A stretch of 39,717 nt of DNA from Haloquadratum walsbyi J07HQW2 (GTDB taxonomy: Archaea > Halobacteriota > Halobacteria > Halobacteriales > Haloferacaceae): contig NZ_KE356561.1 of NCBI RefSeq assembly GCF_000415985.1, positions 3,169,862 through 3,209,578 on the forward strand, read 5' to 3'. Below the pieces are notes generated by a model. It was not told the DNA's origin. It saw only the letters and a list, made by a program, of their open reading frames with translations, and searched no databases. A program made the position numbers and the translations under genes. This document shows, piece by piece, positions 19,841-31,661 of the stretch. Every line of letters begins with the position of its first letter. Position 1 is the first letter of the stretch.

Positions 19841-20251
19841 ATGGGGATTCTGGTCGCGGTTAGCGATGATGGTCAATTCGAGACAGTGCTAAATGTGGCA
19901 GTACAACTAGCCGATGGTCTTGATGAAGAATTGTATGTATCTCATATAACAGAAACCGAGAGTGCATCTGGGGATGAGCGAGACTTTCGTGATGACATCC
20001 GTGAGTTCCTTGAGGAAACGACCATCCCTATTGATATTGGACTTGACCATCTCAGTCGAAGTGGACTCCGCTCAGGGACAGAAGTCGGTAAACAATTGGT
20101 TGAAATTGCAGAAAGTGACGATATTGACCATATTGTGATTGGACATCGATCAAAAGGTCGCCTAACCACAGCTCGTGAGGGACACACTGGATTCGTCGTC
20201 GCCGATGAGGCAGCAGTTCCAGTGACGATTGTCCCCGAAGCGGTCAACTAA
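19841..20251 (+). CDS. Universal stress protein (UspA family)
   Basis: The 136-residue single-domain protein starts MGILVAVSDDGQF, the beta-1 strand of the Usp fold. It ends with the nucleotide-binding loop GHRSKGRLTTAREGHTGFV, close to the G-x2-G-x9-G(S/T) pattern, with VPVTIVP as the last strand. It is therefore an ATP-binding type Usp, likely dimeric and cytosolic. A TATA-like stretch at about 19809-19820 sits at leaderless distance from the ATG. Confidence 0.85.
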   Translation: MGILVAVSDDGQFETVLNVAVQLADGLDEELYVSHITETESASGDERDFRDDIREFLEETTIPIDIGLDHLSRSGLRSGTEVGKQLVEIAESDDIDHIVIGHRSKGRLTTAREGHTGFVVADEAAVPVTIVPEAVN

Positions 20252-20606
20252 CACCTCTGTTGATAAACTCATATATGTTCATCTGACAGTATAGGTTCCC
20301 AGCATGTTATAATATTGATATGAGATTTGATCACCGGACTTCGTTGACGTTTATGAAACCCGTTTTTAATTTTGATGTATTAAATCAACTATATCAAATC
20401 ATTCGTAAGATCGAGAACTCTACGGTATCTTTAGACAATGGTAAAACGAAATCCAATGGCTAGCCGCGGGAGGAACTCAAACTGGGGAATCATATGTATC
20501 AGACACGTACAATCGACAGACAATATTTATACAATGTCATCAATATCAACTCTAACTGCTAAGACATGTATATGACCATTATCCCAATATCACCCCTCAT
20601 AATATC
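20252..20606. other. Upstream region of the envelope locus
   Basis: No ORF is supported. AT-rich, with two TATA-like stretches: CAATATTTATAC near 20521 and CATGTATATGAC near 20566. The nearer one would give a very short leader for the lipoprotein at 20607. I see no clear operator. Confidence 0.4.
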
Positions 20607-21395
20607 ATGAAGCGACGTATGCTGATCCGAACGGTTGTCGGAACTATTGCTATCGGGAGTACAGCAGGTTGTATTCGTCTCTTCCAATCTGATCAGTCAC
20701 CACCTCCGCGCAAATCAAATGTTATCGGTGATATCAGTGTCATGAGCGACGCCGAAGCACTCGAAGTGACAACCGCTCCAGCGGAGTCACAGTGGGTGAT
20801 GACTCGACAAGAAATCGATACTGCGTCTTCACAGACTCAGGCTCAGGCTCAGGCTCAGATCGATAATACTGATACGCATATTGACTGGGATCAACTCTCC
20901 ATTACCGAGGTTGATTCGAGTCTGGACTCAGTATCCCCAATCGGTACAGCCGAAGCAGCAAAGGGAAGAGGTGCAACTGGAAGAGGGCGCGGTGGGTTCT
21001 CATCTGCACCACGCACATCAAATGGTCGTGCGTGGTACGGTGGCGGCGCATATGCAGCTACCTGGTACAATGATCACGATGATGATGTCTCTCGTGTTCC
21101 AGTGACAATTGACACGCTCGGGATTGGATTCATTGGTGATAATGATACATTCACTGAACGATCGCCTGGACCTGGACCAATCAACTGGGAAACAACATAC
21201 GATGACCCAGCGAGAGAAGTGCGAGCTGATCTCGGTCCACGCCGTGGATGGTACCGAGTTGGTGCAGAAGTCAATGCTGAACTCGCCGAGGGGGGAACCC
21301 GGTCTCTTGGGTGGGAGAGTATCGACTTCCGTGTTCAATCCGATGGCAGTGAAGAAGAAATAACGAAAACGTGGAAGGTCTCACCTCGAATATAG
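20607..21395 (+). CDS. Secreted lipoprotein, first gene of the SpeE-like locus
   Basis: 262 residues. The N-terminus MKRRMLIRTVVGTIAIGSTAGC combines a twin-arginine-like signal with a lipobox, with Cys22 as the lipid anchor. A low-complexity QAQAQAQ tract follows, encoded by a tandem hexamer GCTCAG repeated about four times. A glycine/arginine-rich linker (GRGATGRGRGG, near residue 125) leads to a C-terminal beta-rich domain with AWYGGGAYAATWYND and DLGPRRGWYRVGAEV. I do not recognise the domain. Position, 118-127 nt before the membrane spermidine-synthase-like gene on the same strand, suggests it is an exported partner of that system. Confidence 0.7.
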   Translation: MKRRMLIRTVVGTIAIGSTAGCIRLFQSDQSPPPRKSNVIGDISVMSDAEALEVTTAPAESQWVMTRQEIDTASSQTQAQAQAQIDNTDTHIDWDQLSITEVDSSLDSVSPIGTAEAAKGRGATGRGRGGFSSAPRTSNGRAWYGGGAYAATWYNDHDDDVSRVPVTIDTLGIGFIGDNDTFTERSPGPGPINWETTYDDPAREVRADLGPRRGWYRVGAEVNAELAEGGTRSLGWESIDFRVQSDGSEEEITKTWKVSPRI

Positions 21396-21522
21396 CCGTC
21401 TGGACAATGATAACTTACACCTGTGCTAACTCCAATATTCAACTCTGATTATACTCTGTTTCTGATAGACACTCGGTTAATATGATAACCAACTCTCTTA
21501 CCCAATACAATCGTTGCAACCA

Positions 21523-23352
21523 GTGAAACGGCGCATAACCCCGTCGGCACAAACGACCCTCCATATCATCACCTTTCTTGTCGCATTCTGTAGCTTCACA
21601 TACGAACTTGCATATTCAGAACTTCTAACCATAATGTATGGCGGGACAGTAACTCAGTATGGATTAACAATTGGTATCTTTTTTTCATCTCTTGGAGTTG
21701 GGTCATACATTGCCAAGCAGTTCGATGAGACCCGTCCTGAGAATGTATTCCGTACTGAACTTTATTTAGCAGCAACAGCTCCCATTGGTTTGTTATTTAT
21801 TATCTGGGTCAATACAGCTGCAGTGCCGCAGTTGCTCCCAGAAACACTGCTTGCATTGCTAGCCCGCCTACCAGTAGTCGGGATTGGGGTCTTATCTGGC
21901 TTCGAACTCCCGCTGCTGCTTGCACTTGTCAACGACCTAGACTCACCGGCGTTATCGTCACGAGTGCGGCGAATTACGAACGGTGCTGACCGAGTGATCA
22001 ACATGGCTGTCGGACCATTCTTCCATACGTCCAGCTCAAGCAGTGAGTATAATACGTACTCGACAGTTCTCGCGATGGATTATCTTGGGGGACTCATCAG
22101 TGCCCTGATCTATGTTTTTCTTCTGTATCCGAGCGTCGGGCTTATTATCTCTATTTTCGCTTTAGCGCTCATAAACGTCGTTGCAGCCCTTTTGTTTATT
22201 TGTCGATTTAGCTCCCGACCATGGGGGATCCTCGCCTTAGATGATCGTGATATCGTCACAAACGAACGAACTGTACTGGTTGTTGTCACGCTTATGCTCA
22301 CAGCGACGCTTGGTGGAGCTGTTGTATCACACCAGACGGTTGATGACACACTGACAGAGTATTATCTTGAGGGAAATATTGAACAAGAGTACCCGCCTGA
22401 AACGGTCGATGCTGAGATTACGACACAGTTCACCACCCAATATCAACACGTTGTACAGTATAATCGCACTTGGACGGGAAGTAGCGCGAACCCGCTTTTT
22501 GCTGGACAAACAGAGCGATGTCTTCGTCTCGACACAGCCATTCAGGTATGTGATAGTACAGCGCGTCCATATCACAATGGATTGGTAGATGTTCCCCTCT
22601 CAATGTATTCGAACACCACAGATACCGACGTACTTCTTGTTGGTGGTGGCGATTGGATTGCACTTGATCATCTACGTCAACACGATGTCTCTGTTGATCA
22701 TGTTGACATTGATACAGAATTCATGCAGCACGCAAAAACAAACACATTCCTTGCGGAATATCATGATAACGCCTACACATACAGATCTGCGGAAACGCAT
22801 CAAGCTGACATCTATGATTATCTGCAGCGCACAGACGCACAGTATGACGTTATTTTGCTCGATCTACCCGGTGCAAAAACCGATGACCTTCTTTCGGTTT
22901 ACTCGACACAGTTCTATCGGCTGTTGGAAGACTCACTCACCGAGAAGGGTGTTGTCGCAACGTGGGGCTATTCACGATATACATATCCATCCCATCAAAA
23001 AGCATATCTGAATACCGTTTCTCAGGCTGGATTTACACAGTATCAATCATATTACGCATATGATGATTATACTGGCGATGGGGAGACTACGCGGGGGGAG
23101 TTATTTTATCTATTTGCCCCCGATTCATCACGACCGCTAATTGCACCCGCAAACGGGACTCACTACGTCAAAAAACATCGAGATAAATATCAATCGAAAC
23201 GATGGCGCTCAACACCGACGTATCGTAGTGTTAGACCGAATACACTGTTCAATCCTAATTATGAAATCCTCATAGATACCCAGCGTGAGCCAGAACCGCT
23301 CTCAAATCGACTCAATCGACTCCAAAACATGACACTATCCGATCTCACATAA
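21523..23352 (+). CDS. Membrane-embedded spermidine-synthase-like protein
   Basis: 609 residues. The first 265 hold about seven to eight transmembrane helices (SFTYELAYSELL, GLTIGIFFSSLGVGSYIAK, GFELPLLLAL), the hallmark N-terminal half of membrane polyamine aminopropyltransferases. From about residue 365 a soluble Rossmann methyltransferase-like domain begins at LLVGGGDWIALDHL. It continues through VDHVDIDTEFM and ends with VILLDLPGAKTDD. In active SpeE enzymes these read GGGDG and D-x-x-D-P. Here Trp replaces Gly and the second Asp is Gly, so aminopropyl transfer is doubtful. The start is GTG 21523, or TTG 21514 three codons earlier. It overlaps nothing but is only 2 nt before the next gene, so translation is coupled. 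Confidence 0.8.
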   Translation: MKRRITPSAQTTLHIITFLVAFCSFTYELAYSELLTIMYGGTVTQYGLTIGIFFSSLGVGSYIAKQFDETRPENVFRTELYLAATAPIGLLFIIWVNTAAVPQLLPETLLALLARLPVVGIGVLSGFELPLLLALVNDLDSPALSSRVRRITNGADRVINMAVGPFFHTSSSSSEYNTYSTVLAMDYLGGLISALIYVFLLYPSVGLIISIFALALINVVAALLFICRFSSRPWGILALDDRDIVTNERTVLVVVTLMLTATLGGAVVSHQTVDDTLTEYYLEGNIEQEYPPETVDAEITTQFTTQYQHVVQYNRTWTGSSANPLFAGQTERCLRLDTAIQVCDSTARPYHNGLVDVPLSMYSNTTDTDVLLVGGGDWIALDHLRQHDVSVDHVDIDTEFMQHAKTNTFLAEYHDNAYTYRSAETHQADIYDYLQRTDAQYDVILLDLPGAKTDDLLSVYSTQFYRLLEDSLTEKGVVATWGYSRYTYPSHQKAYLNTVSQAGFTQYQSYYAYDDYTGDGETTRGELFYLFAPDSSRPLIAPANGTHYVKKHRDKYQSKRWRSTPTYRSVRPNTLFNPNYEILIDTQREPEPLSNRLNRLQNMTLSDLT

Positions 23353-23354
23353 CC

Positions 23355-23873
23355 ATGTCGACAAATGAACTCTATCTCATCCAGTCTGACCGTCCACGAT
23401 CATTAGACGGTATTGACGTCAAAACAACTCATGAAACAGTATTGTATGCACACCCAGCAGCATTTCACGTTGTTGGTGAATCCCATGCCGTGAGTGTGCC
23501 AGCGCTTCCGTTCTATGAACTTTTTTCATGCCGACCAACACGGACAGAGCAGACACCGAATACAGCAATCACCACCGTTGAACTTTCGCTGGATATAGAG
23601 GTGAATATTACTCATACGTTCGAAAACCACCCAAAGAGTGTCCATACAACTGTGCGAACTGAGCCACTTGCATCATTTCCAGACACAGAGTCGTTCACGA
23701 TTGTGTATAAATTCGATACAGACGCATATACAGCAATTAAATGCATCTCACAAAGCGAGTACCGAACTTATCATACATACCCTGAACATGATCTTACGGT
23801 TATTTCATATCATCAAGTTGGCTCCCCACTGAACACCGAGTCTTTGGATGCAATTGAACCAAATACACAATGA
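23355..23873 (+). CDS. DUF2617-like protein
   Basis: The 172-residue soluble protein has no signal or membrane segment. The pattern HVVGESHAVSVP, then TTVRTEPLASFPD, then DAYTAIKC and RTYHTYPEHDLTVISYHQ resembles by eye the DUF2617 family of bacteria. In those proteins a similar 'AFTA..(W/Y)HTYP...(L/V)V.T' end is seen. Function is unknown. DUF2617 genes in bacteria often lie beside membrane spermidine synthases, which matches the location here, 2 nt after one. Assignment is from memory of the pattern, not from a search. Confidence 0.55.
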   Translation: MSTNELYLIQSDRPRSLDGIDVKTTHETVLYAHPAAFHVVGESHAVSVPALPFYELFSCRPTRTEQTPNTAITTVELSLDIEVNITHTFENHPKSVHTTVRTEPLASFPDTESFTIVYKFDTDAYTAIKCISQSEYRTYHTYPEHDLTVISYHQVGSPLNTESLDAIEPNTQ

Positions 23874-23913
23874 TCGCTGACAGACACTTACTATTTATTT
23901 CAGAATACAACGG

Positions 23914-26091
23914 ATGAGCTGTCAATATACGTTTAATCCAGAACAGAAACACTCGTCACTGACAACCACGTGGTCCTGTCCACATGACTCCCATCCAGCA
24001 AATCAACATTGTCTGTTCCACATGACTCCCGAGGAACGGAGACATAACGATATTACACCACAGGATCTTCAAGCGGCGCTTATATCTGAATTAGCGGCTG
24101 AGACAAATGATAAAAAAGAGTTCATCGGGGCACATATCCCACATCTTGATCTTGACTATATTGATATTGAGACAGATAACCAGTATCCGATTGATTTTCG
24201 ACATACAACAATTGAAGATGGGATCTCGGCTGCTCACGCACGATTCGAAGAACGCGTCGACCTTCGAAATAGCACTGTTGGCGGCTTTCATTCACCAAAC
24301 TGTGCGTTTGAGGACGGATTACTCGCCTCCAAGACAGTCTTCACCGATGTAGTCACACTGTCTGATACAGATTTTAACGGTGATATGATCGATTTCGCCA
24401 ATGCGACCTTTGAGCAGTCTCTCACCTGTGAGGAAATAACAGCCTCCGTTGATGTGTCATTCAAGAATGCAGAATTCAACGGTTGCGTTTCATTTGATGG
24501 CGCATTGCTCACCGAACAGGCGAGCACAATCGATGATAATATTATTTTCGACGATGCGATCTTCCATGATACCGCGTCATTCAAGCATACTTCGTTCTAT
24601 TATACGTCGTTCCAAGACGTCAGATTTCATGACACTGCTAGCTTTAAACACGCTACAGCAAACGGTACAATTCGATTACATGGATCAAGATTTCACGCTG
24701 ATGTTGATTTTGATGAGTTACACTGTCAAGAGGACATCTCATTCAGCAATGTGATATTTGATGGAAAAGCGTCATTTAGAGGGGTATCAATTAGCGGAGG
24801 CGCAGATGTCCTTGCGGATGATCTCTCATTAACGAATGCTAGGTTCAATGATGAGGCTACGTTTGAACGTGGAACGTTTGGGTTCACGAATGCAGAAGGA
24901 GCAGAATTCAATACATGCGTAAATTTCAGACGAAGTACGTTTACTGATGATGTAGCTTTTTGTGACGTCACATTCGCCAACACCGCTGATTTTGATGAAG
25001 TCATTTTTGATGGTGATGTAGCATTCACAGACAGCACGTTCAACGGAGACGCTGTCTTCCGAGGCGCTGAATTTAATGGTGGAACAAATTATCTTGAGTC
25101 TGATGCGGTCTTTACTGACGTCATATTCAACGATGTAGCTAATTTCAGTGATACAAATATTGTCTCAATTGAATTTAGCAAAACTGAGTTTCAATCGACT
25201 GTCGACTTCACGAACGCTGAAATCACTGACACCGTTATCATTCAGACTCCAACATTCACCGACGATTCATATCTCGATTTCACCGATGCAACGATTGAGG
25301 AAGGGACAATTACCCAACCAAAACGTGGGTGGGGATATTTTGACTTTACACGGGCAACGATCGGAGACGTATCACTAACGGCGGCTGACCCGGCTGACAG
25401 ACGAGAGTTACTTGATTACTTTCGGTTTTGTGATACAACGTTTGATGCGTTTGACTTCTCACAACATCTTGAGTATCTTGACCGAAACGACTGGATTCTT
25501 CATCGGTTTGTGCAACCAGAGACTGAGTTCTCACCAGCGCTTGAATTCACGCCGGCACGTATTGAGAAAACATATTTGAAAGCAAAATCCAGTGCTTCGG
25601 CACAGAGCAATCTTAAAGCTGCTGGTGAATTTCGAGTAAAACGCCAACAGTATGCAAAACGAAAGTTCGCTCAGATTGCAACCGACTCCGCAGAGCCAAT
25701 CCGAACACGGATCAAAAACGGGCTTCGAACAATAGAGAATTCGTTTCTTGAACTCTCATGCGGGTATGGACTTCGGTTATATCGAATTACTGCCGTATTT
25801 ATTCTATTCCCATTGGTAGCTGCGATTCTCTTTGCGTTTGGAGGACCACTATTCGAAACTGGTGCCGGACAGACTTCACTGTCTCAGCTAGTGACTGACA
25901 CTGGAGGTGGCGGGACTCGTATTCTCTTGCTCAACATATATTTCTCATATATTACATTTCTTACAATCGGCTATGGTGGCATCGGTCCGCTTGGTCTTGG
26001 CGCTCGGTTCCTAGCTGCGACTCTTGTATATCTCAATGTCATTCTTGCTGGACTCTTCATTTACTCTCTAATTAAACGCAGTGAGATTTAA
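23914..26091 (+). CDS. Pentapeptide-solenoid protein fused to a two-TM potassium-channel pore
   Basis: 725 residues. The first 60 contain Cys/His (CPHDSHPANQHCLFHM), a possible metal-binding knuckle. From about 70 to 520 the chain is built of degenerate pentapeptides centred on F (FDGDVAFTDSTFNGDAVF style), predicting a large beta-helix. After a basic helical linker, the C-terminus has a helix (ITAVFILFPLVAAILFAF), a pore loop with TIGYGG at 684-689 and a last helix. That arrangement is a 2-TM ion channel with a K+ filter (TxGYG). It is likely a K+ channel gated or scaffolded by the solenoid. It lies 40 nt after the DUF2617-like gene on the same strand. Confidence 0.85.
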   Translation: MSCQYTFNPEQKHSSLTTTWSCPHDSHPANQHCLFHMTPEERRHNDITPQDLQAALISELAAETNDKKEFIGAHIPHLDLDYIDIETDNQYPIDFRHTTIEDGISAAHARFEERVDLRNSTVGGFHSPNCAFEDGLLASKTVFTDVVTLSDTDFNGDMIDFANATFEQSLTCEEITASVDVSFKNAEFNGCVSFDGALLTEQASTIDDNIIFDDAIFHDTASFKHTSFYYTSFQDVRFHDTASFKHATANGTIRLHGSRFHADVDFDELHCQEDISFSNVIFDGKASFRGVSISGGADVLADDLSLTNARFNDEATFERGTFGFTNAEGAEFNTCVNFRRSTFTDDVAFCDVTFANTADFDEVIFDGDVAFTDSTFNGDAVFRGAEFNGGTNYLESDAVFTDVIFNDVANFSDTNIVSIEFSKTEFQSTVDFTNAEITDTVIIQTPTFTDDSYLDFTDATIEEGTITQPKRGWGYFDFTRATIGDVSLTAADPADRRELLDYFRFCDTTFDAFDFSQHLEYLDRNDWILHRFVQPETEFSPALEFTPARIEKTYLKAKSSASAQSNLKAAGEFRVKRQQYAKRKFAQIATDSAEPIRTRIKNGLRTIENSFLELSCGYGLRLYRITAVFILFPLVAAILFAFGGPLFETGAGQTSLSQLVTDTGGGGTRILLLNIYFSYITFLTIGYGGIGPLGLGARFLAATLVYLNVILAGLFIYSLIKRSEI

Positions 26092-26148
26092 ACTGAGTAA
26101 CTCAGCAAAAGGGTAATACACACTCAAGCGGATACGGTGTTACACACA

Positions 26149-27114
26149 ATGAGCAATACTCATGCACATGATTTCACGGGAGATATTACACTCAATGGAG
26201 GTGAGGAAACACCGATTTCAGTTGTTGATGCTGAAAATGTTCATTTCAGACGGAATTCGGTCACTGGAAATGTCAAACTCGTTAACCCTGAATACGTATT
26301 TTCCTCTCAACGACCAACCGATCAGGCCGTCCAATCAGATGATATAGAGACCACCGTCAGTGGCTCAATCGAGGATATTTACGTCCCACACAACGGTATT
26401 GAGGGGACGGTCATTATCGATGGTGCAGAGGATGTGTATATTGAGCCAAATGCAATCAGCGGTAATATCGAGATTGTTGGAGAGGAACAACTCTTCTATA
26501 CTCAACTCACGGACTCTCCGTACGGACATGGTGTATACGACGCACACGGGGTCGGGTGGAAACGCTCTGTTTCTGTATCTGATCCCAAACATGGTGTCAG
26601 TGTTACCGGTGGTCGATGCACCGCAGAGATCACTGACGTGACGGCAGATATCGAAGTTATTGTATCTGGTTGGAATAACACAGTCGATATCACTGGGCGA
26701 ACAGCGACCGTTACGGTGTATTTACTTGGATCTCAAAACACCGTGAGGACAAGTCCATATATTACCATTGAGACAGATACACAGGCTGGCATTGAGAATA
26801 CAATCGAACAGGAACCAGTCCCTGCCAGTGATATTATTGAAACAACGAGAGAAGAAGCATATACTGGTCACCTACTTGGACGAGATACTGTTACATTTCA
26901 GGAACCGGCCACAGACAAGGATTATTGTCCTAACTGTGGTGCGAATGCGAATGCAGTCATCACCCGTCGTCAGGAGGATACATTCTTTATTACTAACACC
27001 CCTGTTTACCGATTTGATGCTGGAGGGAGTTCATATGAGTGTGAAAATTGCTCGCCTATTGCCGTTCCAGAGATACAGTTATCCGAAGAGGAGCGAAAAC
27101 AAGTGTTAGGCTAA
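26149..27114 (+). CDS. Bactofilin/DUF3060-like beta-solenoid with C-terminal zinc ribbon
   Basis: 321 residues. The first 230 are short beta repeats rich in G, N, V and I: GDITLNGG, SGSIEDIYVPHNGIEGTVIIDG, ISGNIEIVG, VIVSGWNNTVDI and LGSQNTVRT. The last part recalls DUF3060, and the overall layout recalls polymer-forming bactofilins. A zinc ribbon follows with C260-x2-C263 and C298-x2-C301, then a charged tail. There is no signal peptide, so it is cytosolic, possibly assembling at the inner membrane face. The start is ATG 26149 (the upstream GTG at 26137 is weaker). It is the last gene of the locus, 57 nt after the channel gene and convergent with the next one. Confidence 0.65.
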   Translation: MSNTHAHDFTGDITLNGGEETPISVVDAENVHFRRNSVTGNVKLVNPEYVFSSQRPTDQAVQSDDIETTVSGSIEDIYVPHNGIEGTVIIDGAEDVYIEPNAISGNIEIVGEEQLFYTQLTDSPYGHGVYDAHGVGWKRSVSVSDPKHGVSVTGGRCTAEITDVTADIEVIVSGWNNTVDITGRTATVTVYLLGSQNTVRTSPYITIETDTQAGIENTIEQEPVPASDIIETTREEAYTGHLLGRDTVTFQEPATDKDYCPNCGANANAVITRRQEDTFFITNTPVYRFDAGGSSYECENCSPIAVPEIQLSEEERKQVLG

Positions 27115-27131
27115 TCAATTAACTTATTTCT

Positions 27132-27614
27132 TTACTCAAGAAGAAGAAAACTAATTCCACCAATCGCTGCACTGACAACAGTTAGTATCAGTGTTACAAT
27201 GACACCCAATCCGAAAAGAGCTGGAGCGAAAGTAAGCCCAAAGACAAATCCGATTAATGCGGCAATCCCTGTTGCAGACAGTAATGACCCATTCTCGGTC
27301 TTAGCTCCGATAATTGATCCGGCTGCGATGCCTCCAATCCATGTCAGGGGTAGCGGAATTGCCCCAGTGATGAATGCCCCAATAAACATCATCCCGGCGA
27401 GAACAGCGGTACTGCGTGAATCGTCTCCTTGTCCCGTGTGTGTTTTTGAACTGAGTATATTGAACGTTCGCGTAAGCAAACCAGACCAACTACTACGGTC
27501 TGAGACTGGTCGAGGAGACACTCTAGACCCTGATCGTGAACTCGAAGTCCGCACAGTATCATCGCGATTCGTCTCTGTTGTTTTCGTTTGATCTTTTTGA
27601 CTTTCCTTACTCAT
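27132..27614 (-). CDS. Membrane protein with polar N-terminus (DUF5518-like)
   Basis: 160 residues from the ATG at 27614 (MSKESQKDQTK). The first 75 are hydrophilic and Ser/Thr/Arg-rich. The remainder has about four tightly packed hydrophobic segments rich in Gly and Ala, with PLPLTWIGGIAAGSIIGAKT. That short motif resembles haloarchaeal DUF5518 and related small membrane families. Function is unknown. It converges on the solenoid gene with a 17-nt gap and so is not part of that operon. Confidence 0.6.
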   Translation of the reverse strand: MSKESQKDQTKTTETNRDDTVRTSSSRSGSRVSPRPVSDRSSWSGLLTRTFNILSSKTHTGQGDDSRSTAVLAGMMFIGAFITGAIPLPLTWIGGIAAGSIIGAKTENGSLLSATGIAALIGFVFGLTFAPALFGLGVIVTLILTVVSAAIGGISFLLLE

Positions 27615-27703
27615 GTTAACGTATTCACACTCCAAACAGATGAATGTCTACTCTTCATCTTATCGTTGGTATAATAATAATATCCACAGTAATAATACTG
27701 ATC

Positions 27704-29912: not shown

Positions 29913-31661
29913 ATGTCATCAGACAATGACTCCATTCTTCCTGGGTCCAGTAATTTGAATTCACTGCTTAGTTCTGGTGCCGGTCCAGACCCATCTCCGT
30001 TGTCATTAGCGCTACGAATCGGAGTCGTAGTTCTCGGACTTGTGATCCTCTATCTTGCCCGACCAGTGATTCATTTCTGGGTCTATGGGATGTTATTCAG
30101 CCCGACTGGACTCATTCTCTTTGGAACCGCAACTGTTGGCATCGCCGTCGGCATATTACTGTTTTTATTCCCCGGATTTCGAAGCGCTGTCAGATTTAAT
30201 GACATCAATGTGGCTGGAACTGCGATTGTGTTCGTTTTCTTTCTCTCGATTGGTGTCGGAGGGATTACCGGAATATTTGAAAGTAAGAGTCTTGCTGAGC
30301 GGACAACAGTGAATGCCGAAGAGATCGACGAACTCCCAGCAATTGCTGAAGAGAATCCACGGATTGTCCCACGTCCGGTTTCTGATGTTCAAACACGTGG
30401 GTCGGTTTCTTATCGGCAACATCGACTTGGAACAAGCGATATTGCCCGCTCCCCAGATGGGTCACTGGTCTGGAGTTATGCCATTGAGCCTGACCCATTC
30501 CGTATCCAACTTACGGGGAATCAGCGAGGCGTGCTACTGAGCGATATGACATCGATTGAGAACCGCAGTATCTCTGCGTTTGACGACCAGGACTTCAAGC
30601 ACGGACAAAATATGTTTTTGTTCCGATCAGCAAGTTGGCAACTCAAGACAACTGGTGGCTACTGGAGCACATATCAGGATGATCCTGTTGAGTTTGTGCA
30701 CGATGGAACGGCATACATGGCGTATCCAAAAACCGGTCATGAGTGGAAGCTGACCCCAATTCCACATACGGTCCCAGTCTGGGATGGCGTTGGGCTTGTC
30801 CATCCAGACGGCACGATTGAGCATTTATCACCTGAGGAAGCACAGGATAGTGAAGTGCTCGATGGACAGCGTCTTTACCCACTGACACTCGCTCGTGAGG
30901 AGGCTGAATCACTCCGGTTCCGAAATGGCATCATCAATCAACTTTCTGTTGTTGGGTCATTCCGTGGTGTTATCGAACCCGCATCACTCCCAGTCACGGC
31001 GAGTAATGAACAGCCGTTTGTTATTGATACAGAGACAGATGGAATGACGTACGTGATGGCGATGGAGCCATTCGGTGAGTCAACTCGTGGTCTTGACGAA
31101 GTGTGGTTGTTTGACGCCGATAGTAATGAGCGGAAGGTATTCTCAACCGGTCGAGAGACTCTGCTTGGTCCTGAACGGGCGGTTGGGATTGTTCGTTCAG
31201 AGGATAGTCGAACGAACTGGGCTGGTTCTAATGGAGATGGGCAATTCAAAGTTGTTGAGCCAATCCCAGTTATTATTGATTCTCAACTGTGGTGGCATAC
31301 AAAGGTATCACCAACAGATAACACTGCTGTGACGCGAAATGTATTTGTTAACGCTGACACTGAAGAGGCGATTGAACTCGGAGAGACTAAAGACGTCGTC
31401 TCGTTCCTTGCCGGCGCGTCAGTTACTCCTGTTGCAGATCAAAATAACGATAGCGCAGAGCAGACCGGGACCGCAACGACTGCCTCAGGTAGCGATAATA
31501 TTGGATATGTAATTGTTGTTCGCGACGAGAATGGAAACGTTATTGACCGGATTCAAGTTCCGGAAAATCAAACCGCGACGATTGAGAGCATCCAGCGCAA
31601 CACAACAGTAACGACACCAACTGCTTCGGAATCGTCAGCAACGAATAACGCAACATCCTGA
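29913..31661 (+). CDS. Large membrane-anchored protein with soluble domain, function unknown
   Basis: 582 residues. After a polar 30-residue start come three hydrophobic segments (about 32-50, 60-85 and 98-122). A long soluble part of about 450 residues follows. Conserved-looking stretches include NPRIVPRPVSDVQTRGSV, YRQHRLGTSDIARSPDG, YIPHTVPVWDGVGLVHPDGTIEHLSPEEAQ and LDGQRLYPLTLAREEA. The tail is Thr/Ser-rich (TGTATTASGSDN, TPTASESSATNNATS) and contains NGNVIDRIQVPENQTATIE. The soluble part probably faces outside, since the low-complexity tail is typical of haloarchaeal exported domains. I recognise a family resemblance among haloarchaeal hypotheticals but no function. The start is well defined by a Shine-Dalgarno. 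Confidence 0.75.
   Translation: MSSDNDSILPGSSNLNSLLSSGAGPDPSPLSLALRIGVVVLGLVILYLARPVIHFWVYGMLFSPTGLILFGTATVGIAVGILLFLFPGFRSAVRFNDINVAGTAIVFVFFLSIGVGGITGIFESKSLAERTTVNAEEIDELPAIAEENPRIVPRPVSDVQTRGSVSYRQHRLGTSDIARSPDGSLVWSYAIEPDPFRIQLTGNQRGVLLSDMTSIENRSISAFDDQDFKHGQNMFLFRSASWQLKTTGGYWSTYQDDPVEFVHDGTAYMAYPKTGHEWKLTPIPHTVPVWDGVGLVHPDGTIEHLSPEEAQDSEVLDGQRLYPLTLAREEAESLRFRNGIINQLSVVGSFRGVIEPASLPVTASNEQPFVIDTETDGMTYVMAMEPFGESTRGLDEVWLFDADSNERKVFSTGRETLLGPERAVGIVRSEDSRTNWAGSNGDGQFKVVEPIPVIIDSQLWWHTKVSPTDNTAVTRNVFVNADTEEAIELGETKDVVSFLAGASVTPVADQNNDSAEQTGTATTASGSDNIGYVIVVRDENGNVIDRIQVPENQTATIESIQRNTTVTTPTASESSATNNATS

What the first reader, a model, noticed from the sequence alone, without database searches (positions are those of the whole stretch)
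20607..27114. Candidate envelope system: lipoprotein, membrane SpeE homologue, DUF2617-like, solenoid K+ channel and bactofilin-like zinc protein
Five same-strand genes with gaps of about 2 to 127 nt form one probable unit. It combines an exported lipoprotein, a multi-TM spermidine-synthase-like protein, a DUF2617-like protein, a pentapeptide solenoid fused to a TxGYG channel pore, and a beta-solenoid with a zinc ribbon. In bacteria, membrane SpeE homologues are found with DUF350, DUF4178, DUF2617 and sometimes ion-channel genes. To my knowledge that arrangement has not been described experimentally in archaea. A membrane-associated stress or signalling role using ion flux and an SAM-like cofactor is inference.
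Basis: partly seen in the sequence, partly recalled or inferred. Interest (0 to 1): 0.7.

Follow-up and report, generated by a model that had tools for sequence, protein, structure and literature searches.

The report
Haloarchaeal membrane aminopropyl-transferase module
Five neighbouring genes travel together through many salt-loving archaea and probably form one membrane system, built around a membrane-anchored relative of spermidine synthase and a small partner protein that looks like a hidden S-adenosylmethionine decarboxylase, the enzyme these organisms were thought to lack.

Summary
The five-gene unit is real and is a conserved module. In 155 haloarchaeal genomes the module-type SpeE and DUF2617 occur in exactly the same 22, side by side; all five genes are present in all 22, in four arrangements, while flanking genes are not conserved. 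Of 48 loci found through DUF2617 in roughly 20 genera, 46 carry SpeE and 40 the channel.

Its profile's only PDB match is an AdoMetDC. In a 1,676-ORF test the top 20 hits were all AdoMetDCs. Its invariant residues follow the spacing of human F223/S229/H243/E247, and it keeps an invariant Ser and Cys. Related bacterial operons mostly carry a true SpeD there. All 22 module genomes lack recognisable AdoMetDC, an acknowledged gap in the literature (PMC5178350). The module SpeE keeps the donor-site residues (67/67) but has Gly at an acceptor-side Asp.

Best reading: an archaeal variant of bacterial SpeE/SpeD/DUF350/DUF4178 envelope systems, in which dcAdoMet-dependent aminopropylation is tied to a K+ channel. 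Decarboxylase activity and envelope role are untested.

The parts
20526..20531 (+). TTTATA motif, candidate TATA box about 80 nt upstream of the first gene
   Evidence: read directly; not tested experimentally
20607..21395 (+). Tat-type lipoprotein (262 aa), Gly/Arg-rich conserved core, no Pfam family; weak beta-sandwich model
   Evidence: (RR and lipobox Cys invariant in 21/21)
21514..23352 (+). membrane spermidine-synthase-like protein (612 aa; start may be GTG 21523): hydrophobic N-terminal half plus aminopropyltransferase domain with Y353/H354, GGGD380, D450 kept and Gly453 in place of the second Asp of DxxD
23355..23873 (+). DUF2617 protein (172 aa), predicted AdoMet decarboxylase relative: S43-H44, E55, C59, F120, T126, H140-TYP-E144 invariant
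23914..26091 (+). pentapeptide-repeat solenoid fused to a C-terminal 2-TM K+-channel-type pore (T-I-G-Y-G filter); N-terminal C...CPH...C.FH motif, possibly zinc-binding
26137..27114 (+). DUF3060-like beta-rich protein with C-terminal CxxC/CxxC zinc ribbon (start probably ATG 26149 by comparison with the genus-mate orthologue)

Best explanation
The five genes are one haloarchaeal membrane-associated module. Its enzymatic core is the translationally coupled pair DUF2617-SpeE. DUF2617 is a minimal, diverged member of the AdoMet decarboxylase superfamily that binds AdoMet and probably decarboxylates it after self-cleavage before Ser43. The membrane SpeE uses dcAdoMet to aminopropylate an acceptor other than putrescine at the membrane: a small amine such as agmatine, or a lipid or protein amine. 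The outer-face Tat lipoprotein and the pentapeptide-solenoid K+ channel are the sensor and output arms, and the DUF3060-like zinc-ribbon protein is a cytosolic scaffold or adaptor. Shown: conservation, co-occurrence, gene order, residue conservation, absence of recognisable class I AdoMetDC. Inferred: AdoMetDC homology (about 0.7), decarboxylase activity (about 0.35), acceptor, channel coupling and stress role.
For: Linkage: SpeE and DUF2617 in the identical 22/155 genomes, adjacent in all, 21/22 with gap -4 to +6 nt; five genes present in 22/22 genomes (in G113 the channel is encoded elsewhere) with rearranged order; flanks not conserved; 48 loci in about 20 genera, SpeE in 46. DUF2617 as AdoMetDC relative: only PDB profile hit is AdoMetDC 2iii, E 0.048; hhalign P 4e-5, probability 70% against AdoMetDC versus at most 0.5% for 40 column-shuffled controls; HMM ranking test, top 20 of 1,676 ORFs all AdoMetDC; highest Foldseek probability among listed hits in both libraries is an AdoMetDC (2iii 0.57; phage proenzyme 0.80); invariant F120-x5-T126-x13-H140-x3-E144 matches human F223/S229/H243/E247 spacing exactly, with invariant S43 and C59. 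Bacterial relatives of the SpeE sit with true speD in 5 of 7 loci examined. No PF02675 AdoMetDC in any of the 22. Module SpeE keeps Y353/H354/D380/D450 in 67/67; seven HVO_0255-like haloarchaeal paralogues lack the D380 equivalent.
Against: The AdoMetDC match is local (about 30 columns around HTxPE); overall TM-scores are low (0.2-0.36) and no Foldseek hit reaches E 0.001; the internal repeat expected of a fused AdoMetDC was not detected; the N-terminal Glu residues of human AdoMetDC (E8/E11) have no obvious counterpart; S43-to-C59 spacing is 16 versus 14 in human; residue 42 varies (S/E/N/D). Haloferax volcanii contains agmatine and cadaverine but no spermidine was found, and the HVO_B0357 deletion had no phenotype (PMC5178350). 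The channel gene is missing from some loci.
Confidence: 0.5

Rival explanations
1. DUF2617 is a catalytically dead AdoMetDC-fold pseudoenzyme that senses AdoMet, dcAdoMet or a polyamine and regulates the membrane SpeE or the channel, like the trypanosome AdoMetDC prozyme.
For: Same homology evidence; fold search lists the T. brucei AdoMetDC/prozyme structure 6bm7 among hits; E8/E11-like residues missing; residue before Ser43 varies.
Against: Ser43, Cys59, Thr126, His140 and Glu144 are invariant in 68-69 of 69 sequences, unusual for a dead enzyme; no active partner AdoMetDC (PF02675) exists in the 22 genomes.
Confidence: 0.25
2. DUF2617 is a metal-dependent beta-sandwich enzyme or metal sensor (two His plus acidic residues), unrelated to AdoMetDC; the HTYPE similarity is convergent. 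PMC11237479 describes bacterial DUF2617 as a predicted beta-sandwich enzyme with two His, an Asp and a Glu.
For: Invariant H44, H140, E55, E144, C59 could form a metal site; AlphaFold model is nearly all-beta; whole-fold TM-scores to AdoMetDC are low.
Against: Exact spacing match to four human AdoMetDC residues and AdoMetDC-specific ranking are not predicted by this idea; positional equivalence to speD in bacterial operons.
Confidence: 0.25
3. The membrane SpeE-like domain is a repurposed AdoMet-binding methyltransferase or transporter domain, with no aminopropyl chemistry; the module is a membrane or ion homeostasis device.
For: Acceptor-side residues of spermidine synthases are lost (355 variable, Gly453); [quoted passage not shown] no spermidine found in Haloferax.
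Against: The donor-side pair D380/D450 with Y353/H354 is kept in 67/67 module SpeEs, while seven HVO_0255-like paralogues aligned lack D380; tight coupling to the AdoMetDC-like DUF2617.
Confidence: 0.25
4. The genes form an anti-virus defence island.
For: Patchy distribution, often on plasmids; membrane channel component.
Against: No PADLOC model matches any of the five; flanking genes differ between loci.
Confidence: 0.05

Closest known systems
Bacterial membrane SpeE / DUF350 / DUF4178 / AdoMetDC operons (PSP-associated systems of PMC11237479; e.g. Alteromonas mediterranea plasmid, Novosphingobium sp. ES2-1 plasmid)
   Same: membrane-anchored SpeE, an AdoMetDC (or AdoMetDC-like) neighbour, other membrane genes; lipoprotein and potassium channel reported in some variants
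   Different: no DUF350, DUF4178, PspA, CesT or SPFH gene in the haloarchaeal module; true SpeD replaced by DUF2617; channel carries a pentapeptide solenoid; extra DUF3060-like zinc-ribbon protein; bacterial SpeE keeps YHE and DxPD, haloarchaeal one has YHx and DxPG
DUF2617/DUF4247 operon variant of PMC11237479 (e.g. CCP45394/CCP45395)
   Same: DUF2617 plus an exported or lipoprotein partner in a polyamine-gene neighbourhood
   Different: haloarchaeal lipoprotein has no Pfam match, including DUF4247; no DUF350
Haloferax volcanii HVO_B0357 (SpeE homologue)
   Same: described GGGD(W/Y) membrane SpeE (PMC6267482); the module is present in several Haloferax species and DUF2617 rings in H. volcanii
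   Different: only the SpeE was described before; its partners were not linked to it in the papers read
S-adenosylmethionine decarboxylase (class I SpeD PF02675; class II human type PF01536)
   Same: local profile match, catalytic-residue spacing, position next to SpeE
   Different: below curated cut-off (13.5 versus 25 bits), mostly all-beta model, fewer helices, no detectable internal repeat

Membership tests
DUF2617 (PF10936) | score above curated cut-off | tested here: met
   31.6 bits against 22.3; all 21 aligned homologues match at E<=1
AdoMet decarboxylase superfamily | score above PF02675 cut-off | tested here: not met
   13.5 bits against 25, E 0.096
AdoMet decarboxylase superfamily | profile-level sequence similarity beyond chance | tested here: met
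   hhalign P 4e-5 versus shuffled controls; top 20 of 1,676 ORFs; only PDB hit
AdoMet decarboxylase superfamily | pyruvoyl-forming Ser, catalytic Cys, Ser/Thr229, His243, Glu247 equivalents | tested here: inconclusive
   S43, C59, T126, H140, E144 invariant; C-terminal four (with F120) match human spacing exactly, S-to-C spacing differs by 2; E8/E11 not found
AdoMet decarboxylase superfamily | four-layer alpha/beta fold | tested here: inconclusive
   AF2 model pLDDT 87; AdoMetDC has the highest Foldseek probability among listed hits in two libraries but low TM-score
AdoMet decarboxylase superfamily | self-cleavage and AdoMet decarboxylation | not testable with these tools
   needs biochemistry
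Spermidine synthase / aminopropyltransferase (PF01564) | family score above cut-off | tested here: met
   54.4 bits against 22.9; 25 PDB aminopropyltransferase sequences matched
Spermidine synthase / aminopropyltransferase (PF01564) | dcAdoMet-binding GGGD/E and first Asp of DxxD | tested here: met
   D380 and D450 in 67/67
Spermidine synthase / aminopropyltransferase (PF01564) | putrescine-side residues (YHE Glu, second Asp of DxxD) | tested here: not met
   355 variable, 453 Gly in 67/67
Bacterial SpeE/DUF350/DUF4178 PSP-linked system | DUF350 and DUF4178 genes in the unit | tested here: not met
   Pfam scan of the window proteins shows neither, and no sixth gene is conserved across the 22 loci
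K+ channel (Ion_trans_2) | TxGYG selectivity filter between two TM segments | tested here: met
   T-x-G-Y-G invariant in 18/18 aligned; hydrophobic segments 625-643 and 699-717; Pfam score 21.7, just under cut-off 22.5
Bactofilin (PF04519) | match to bactofilin family | tested here: not met
   no hit at E<=0.5 in 20 homologues; DUF3060 in 17 of 20

The most novel reading that the evidence does not exclude
DUF2617 is a new, minimal class of pyruvoyl-dependent AdoMet decarboxylase, with human-like placement of active-site residues in about 150 residues. It is the missing source of decarboxylated AdoMet in halophilic archaea and feeds a membrane aminopropyltransferase that modifies an unknown membrane acceptor, coupled to a K+ channel.
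Probability: 0.3. Interest if true: 0.85.

Novelty: new variant of a known kind. Interest (0 to 1): 0.64.

Why it matters
Published work on Haloferax volcanii states that no AdoMet decarboxylase was found in H. volcanii or in halophiles generally, and that both the source of decarboxylated AdoMet and the role of the SpeE homologues are unexplained (PMC5178350). This analysis links one of those SpeE types, in every genome examined, to an AdoMetDC-like partner and three envelope or channel genes. That turns an open question into simple experiments in a genetically tractable archaeon. It would also give a biochemical hypothesis to DUF2617, a family that also occurs in bacteria.

Tried and rejected
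Bactofilin assignment of gene 5: no hit. Defence system: no PADLOC match. Lipoprotein as DUF4247 or another known family: no Pfam or PDB match, low-confidence model. Internal duplication in DUF2617: not detected. Class II AdoMetDC (PF01536) in haloarchaea: nothing found, but no control genome rang either, so uninformative. Bacterial DUF2617 sequences could not be obtained: a plasmid search at E<=1 and the one genome-contig scan returned only haloarchaea. The 'stops inside' flags are match overrun past the C-terminal stop; the ORFs are intact. Haloferax volcanii pHV4 record not held. An hhalign comparison to the single human AdoMetDC sequence alone is weak (E 0.06), though it lands on the same residues.
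Full report
OBSERVATION. Five + strand ORFs occupy 20607-27114 with gaps of 118, 2, 40 and 45 nt. Pfam gives Spermine_synth for gene 2, DUF2617 for gene 3, pentapeptide repeats plus Ion_trans_2 for gene 4, and a weak DUF3060 plus zinc ribbon for gene 5; gene 1 has no family. The window lies in a 3.59-Mb single-contig genome. Its genus-mate G014 has a contig of 3,148,033 bases, the size I recall for the Haloquadratum walsbyi C23 chromosome, and the nearest named DUF2617 homologues are Haloquadratum, so the window is very probably a Haloquadratum.

A CONSERVED MODULE. In 155 genomes of the class, 22 carry a strong homologue of the module SpeE (375 bits or more; the next group of SpeE hits is below 40 bits). 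Exactly the same 22 carry DUF2617, and the two genes are adjacent in all of them; one pair spans the two ends of a contig, consistent with a circular replicon. The lipoprotein and the DUF3060/zinc-ribbon protein also occur in these 22, with only one marginal extra genome each. The gene order differs between lineages: channel before or after gene 5, gene 5 divergent upstream, or genes 4 and 5 flipped downstream. Clustering of all called neighbours shows no sixth conserved gene. SpeE and DUF2617 are separated by -4 to +6 nt in 21 of 22 loci. A scan of GTDB genome contigs with the DUF2617 alignment found 48 loci, all haloarchaeal, in about 20 named genera; 46 carry SpeE, 47 the lipoprotein, 46 gene 5 and 40 the channel, several losses being contig ends. 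Many copies lie on plasmids. Pairwise protein distances of the five genes correlate at 0.83-0.94, as expected for co-inheritance.

DUF2617 LOOKS LIKE AN AdoMet DECARBOXYLASE. A profile of 21 homologues matched only one sequence in the PDB at E<=10: AdoMet decarboxylase 2iii, E 0.048. Pfam AdoMet_dc is the second hit of the window protein, E 0.096, below its cut-off. Profile-profile comparison with 32 AdoMetDCs gives P 4e-5 and probability 70%; 40 column-shuffled versions reach at most 0.5%, and the four other module families at most 0.4%. In a ranking test against 1,676 ORFs that included 39 AdoMetDCs, the 20 best DUF2617-HMM hits were all AdoMetDCs; profiles of three other module proteins showed no such enrichment (the AdoMetDCs are related to one another, so these are not 20 independent events). 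An AlphaFold2 model (pLDDT 87, pTM 0.81) gave no significant fold match, but among the listed hits the highest Foldseek probability was an AdoMetDC in both libraries: 2iii, 0.57 and a phage AdoMetDC proenzyme, 0.80.

RESIDUES. Across 69 DUF2617 sequences, F120, T126, H140, P143 and E144 are invariant in 69, and S43, H44, E55 and C59 in 68 with one gap. The human enzyme, whose numbering is supported by PDB chains cut at residue 68 and by proenzyme entries altered at residues 68 and 243, has F223, S229, H243, E247. The steps +6, +14, +4 are identical in DUF2617. That these human residues stack on adenine, take part in self-processing and bind the ribose is established knowledge recalled, not tested. 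The human pyruvoyl residue S68 and the acid C82 are 14 apart; S43 and C59 are 16 apart. Human E8/E11 have no evident counterpart, and an internal repeat was not found.

THE SpeE PARTNER. In 67 of 67 module SpeEs, Y353/H354, GGGD380 and D450 are kept, the positions that hold the donor side in spermidine synthases, while the Glu of YHE is lost and the second Asp of DxxD is Gly. Seven HVO_0255-like membrane SpeEs, taken from genomes without DUF2617, lack the D380 equivalent. Bacterial membrane SpeEs keep the canonical residues and sit with a true speD in five of seven loci examined, with DUF4178 and DUF350 in the two that are annotated. So DUF2617 takes the place of speD in the haloarchaeal module. 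PF02675 is absent from all 22 module genomes; only 2 of 155 haloarchaea have it, one matching Halobaculum rubrum, which has an ordinary speD-speE pair on a plasmid.

LITERATURE. H. volcanii carries DUF2617 (control genome) and the GGGD(W/Y) SpeE HVO_B0357 (PMC6267482). Authors found no AdoMetDC in H. volcanii or in halophiles generally, asked where dcAdoMet would come from, noted loss of putrescine-binding residues, found agmatine and cadaverine but no spermidine, and saw no phenotype for the HVO_B0357 deletion (PMC5178350). PMC11237479 describes the bacterial operons, including a DUF2617/DUF4247 variant, and calls DUF2617 a predicted beta-sandwich enzyme with two conserved His. No paper found describes the haloarchaeal module or proposes an AdoMetDC relationship for DUF2617; the library is incomplete.

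MECHANISM AND CONFIDENCE. That this is a real module: about 0.97. That DUF2617 is an AdoMetDC relative: about 0.7. That it is an active decarboxylase: about 0.35. That SpeE uses dcAdoMet on a non-putrescine acceptor: about 0.45. Coupling to the K+ channel and an envelope role: inference from gene linkage and predicted locations only.

Noticed in passing
L159 6912-9237 (G090 contig 34): In a haloarchaeon without the module, a true AdoMetDC gene lies tail-to-tail with a pentapeptide-repeat protein related to gene 4, at a contig end.
   Followed up: partly
L158 4050-5828 (Halobaculum rubrum plasmid): Ordinary speD and speE genes occur on a haloarchaeal plasmid, an exception to the published statement that halophiles lack AdoMetDC.
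   Followed up: partly
L069 (Haloferax larsenii plasmid pHl5678-1) and G113:C17:250127-252403: In Haloferax larsenii the channel gene is not beside the other four; in G113 a homologue is encoded on another contig.
   Followed up: yes
window 23914-24050: The channel protein begins with a C...CPH...C.FH motif, possibly a small zinc finger before the solenoid, absent in some lineages.
   Followed up: no
L148 (J07HX64 MAG): DUF2617 present with lipoprotein and channel but no SpeE or gene 5 detected in the locus; possibly a decaying copy or assembly problem.
   Followed up: no
window 19841-20251, 27132-27635, 29913-31661: Flanking genes (universal stress protein, small membrane protein, large membrane protein) recur only in genus-mate G014, so they mark local synteny rather than the module.
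   Followed up: partly
window 21514 and 26137: Start codons of SpeE and gene 5 are probably slightly downstream (GTG 21523, ATG 26149) by comparison with orthologues.
   Followed up: partly
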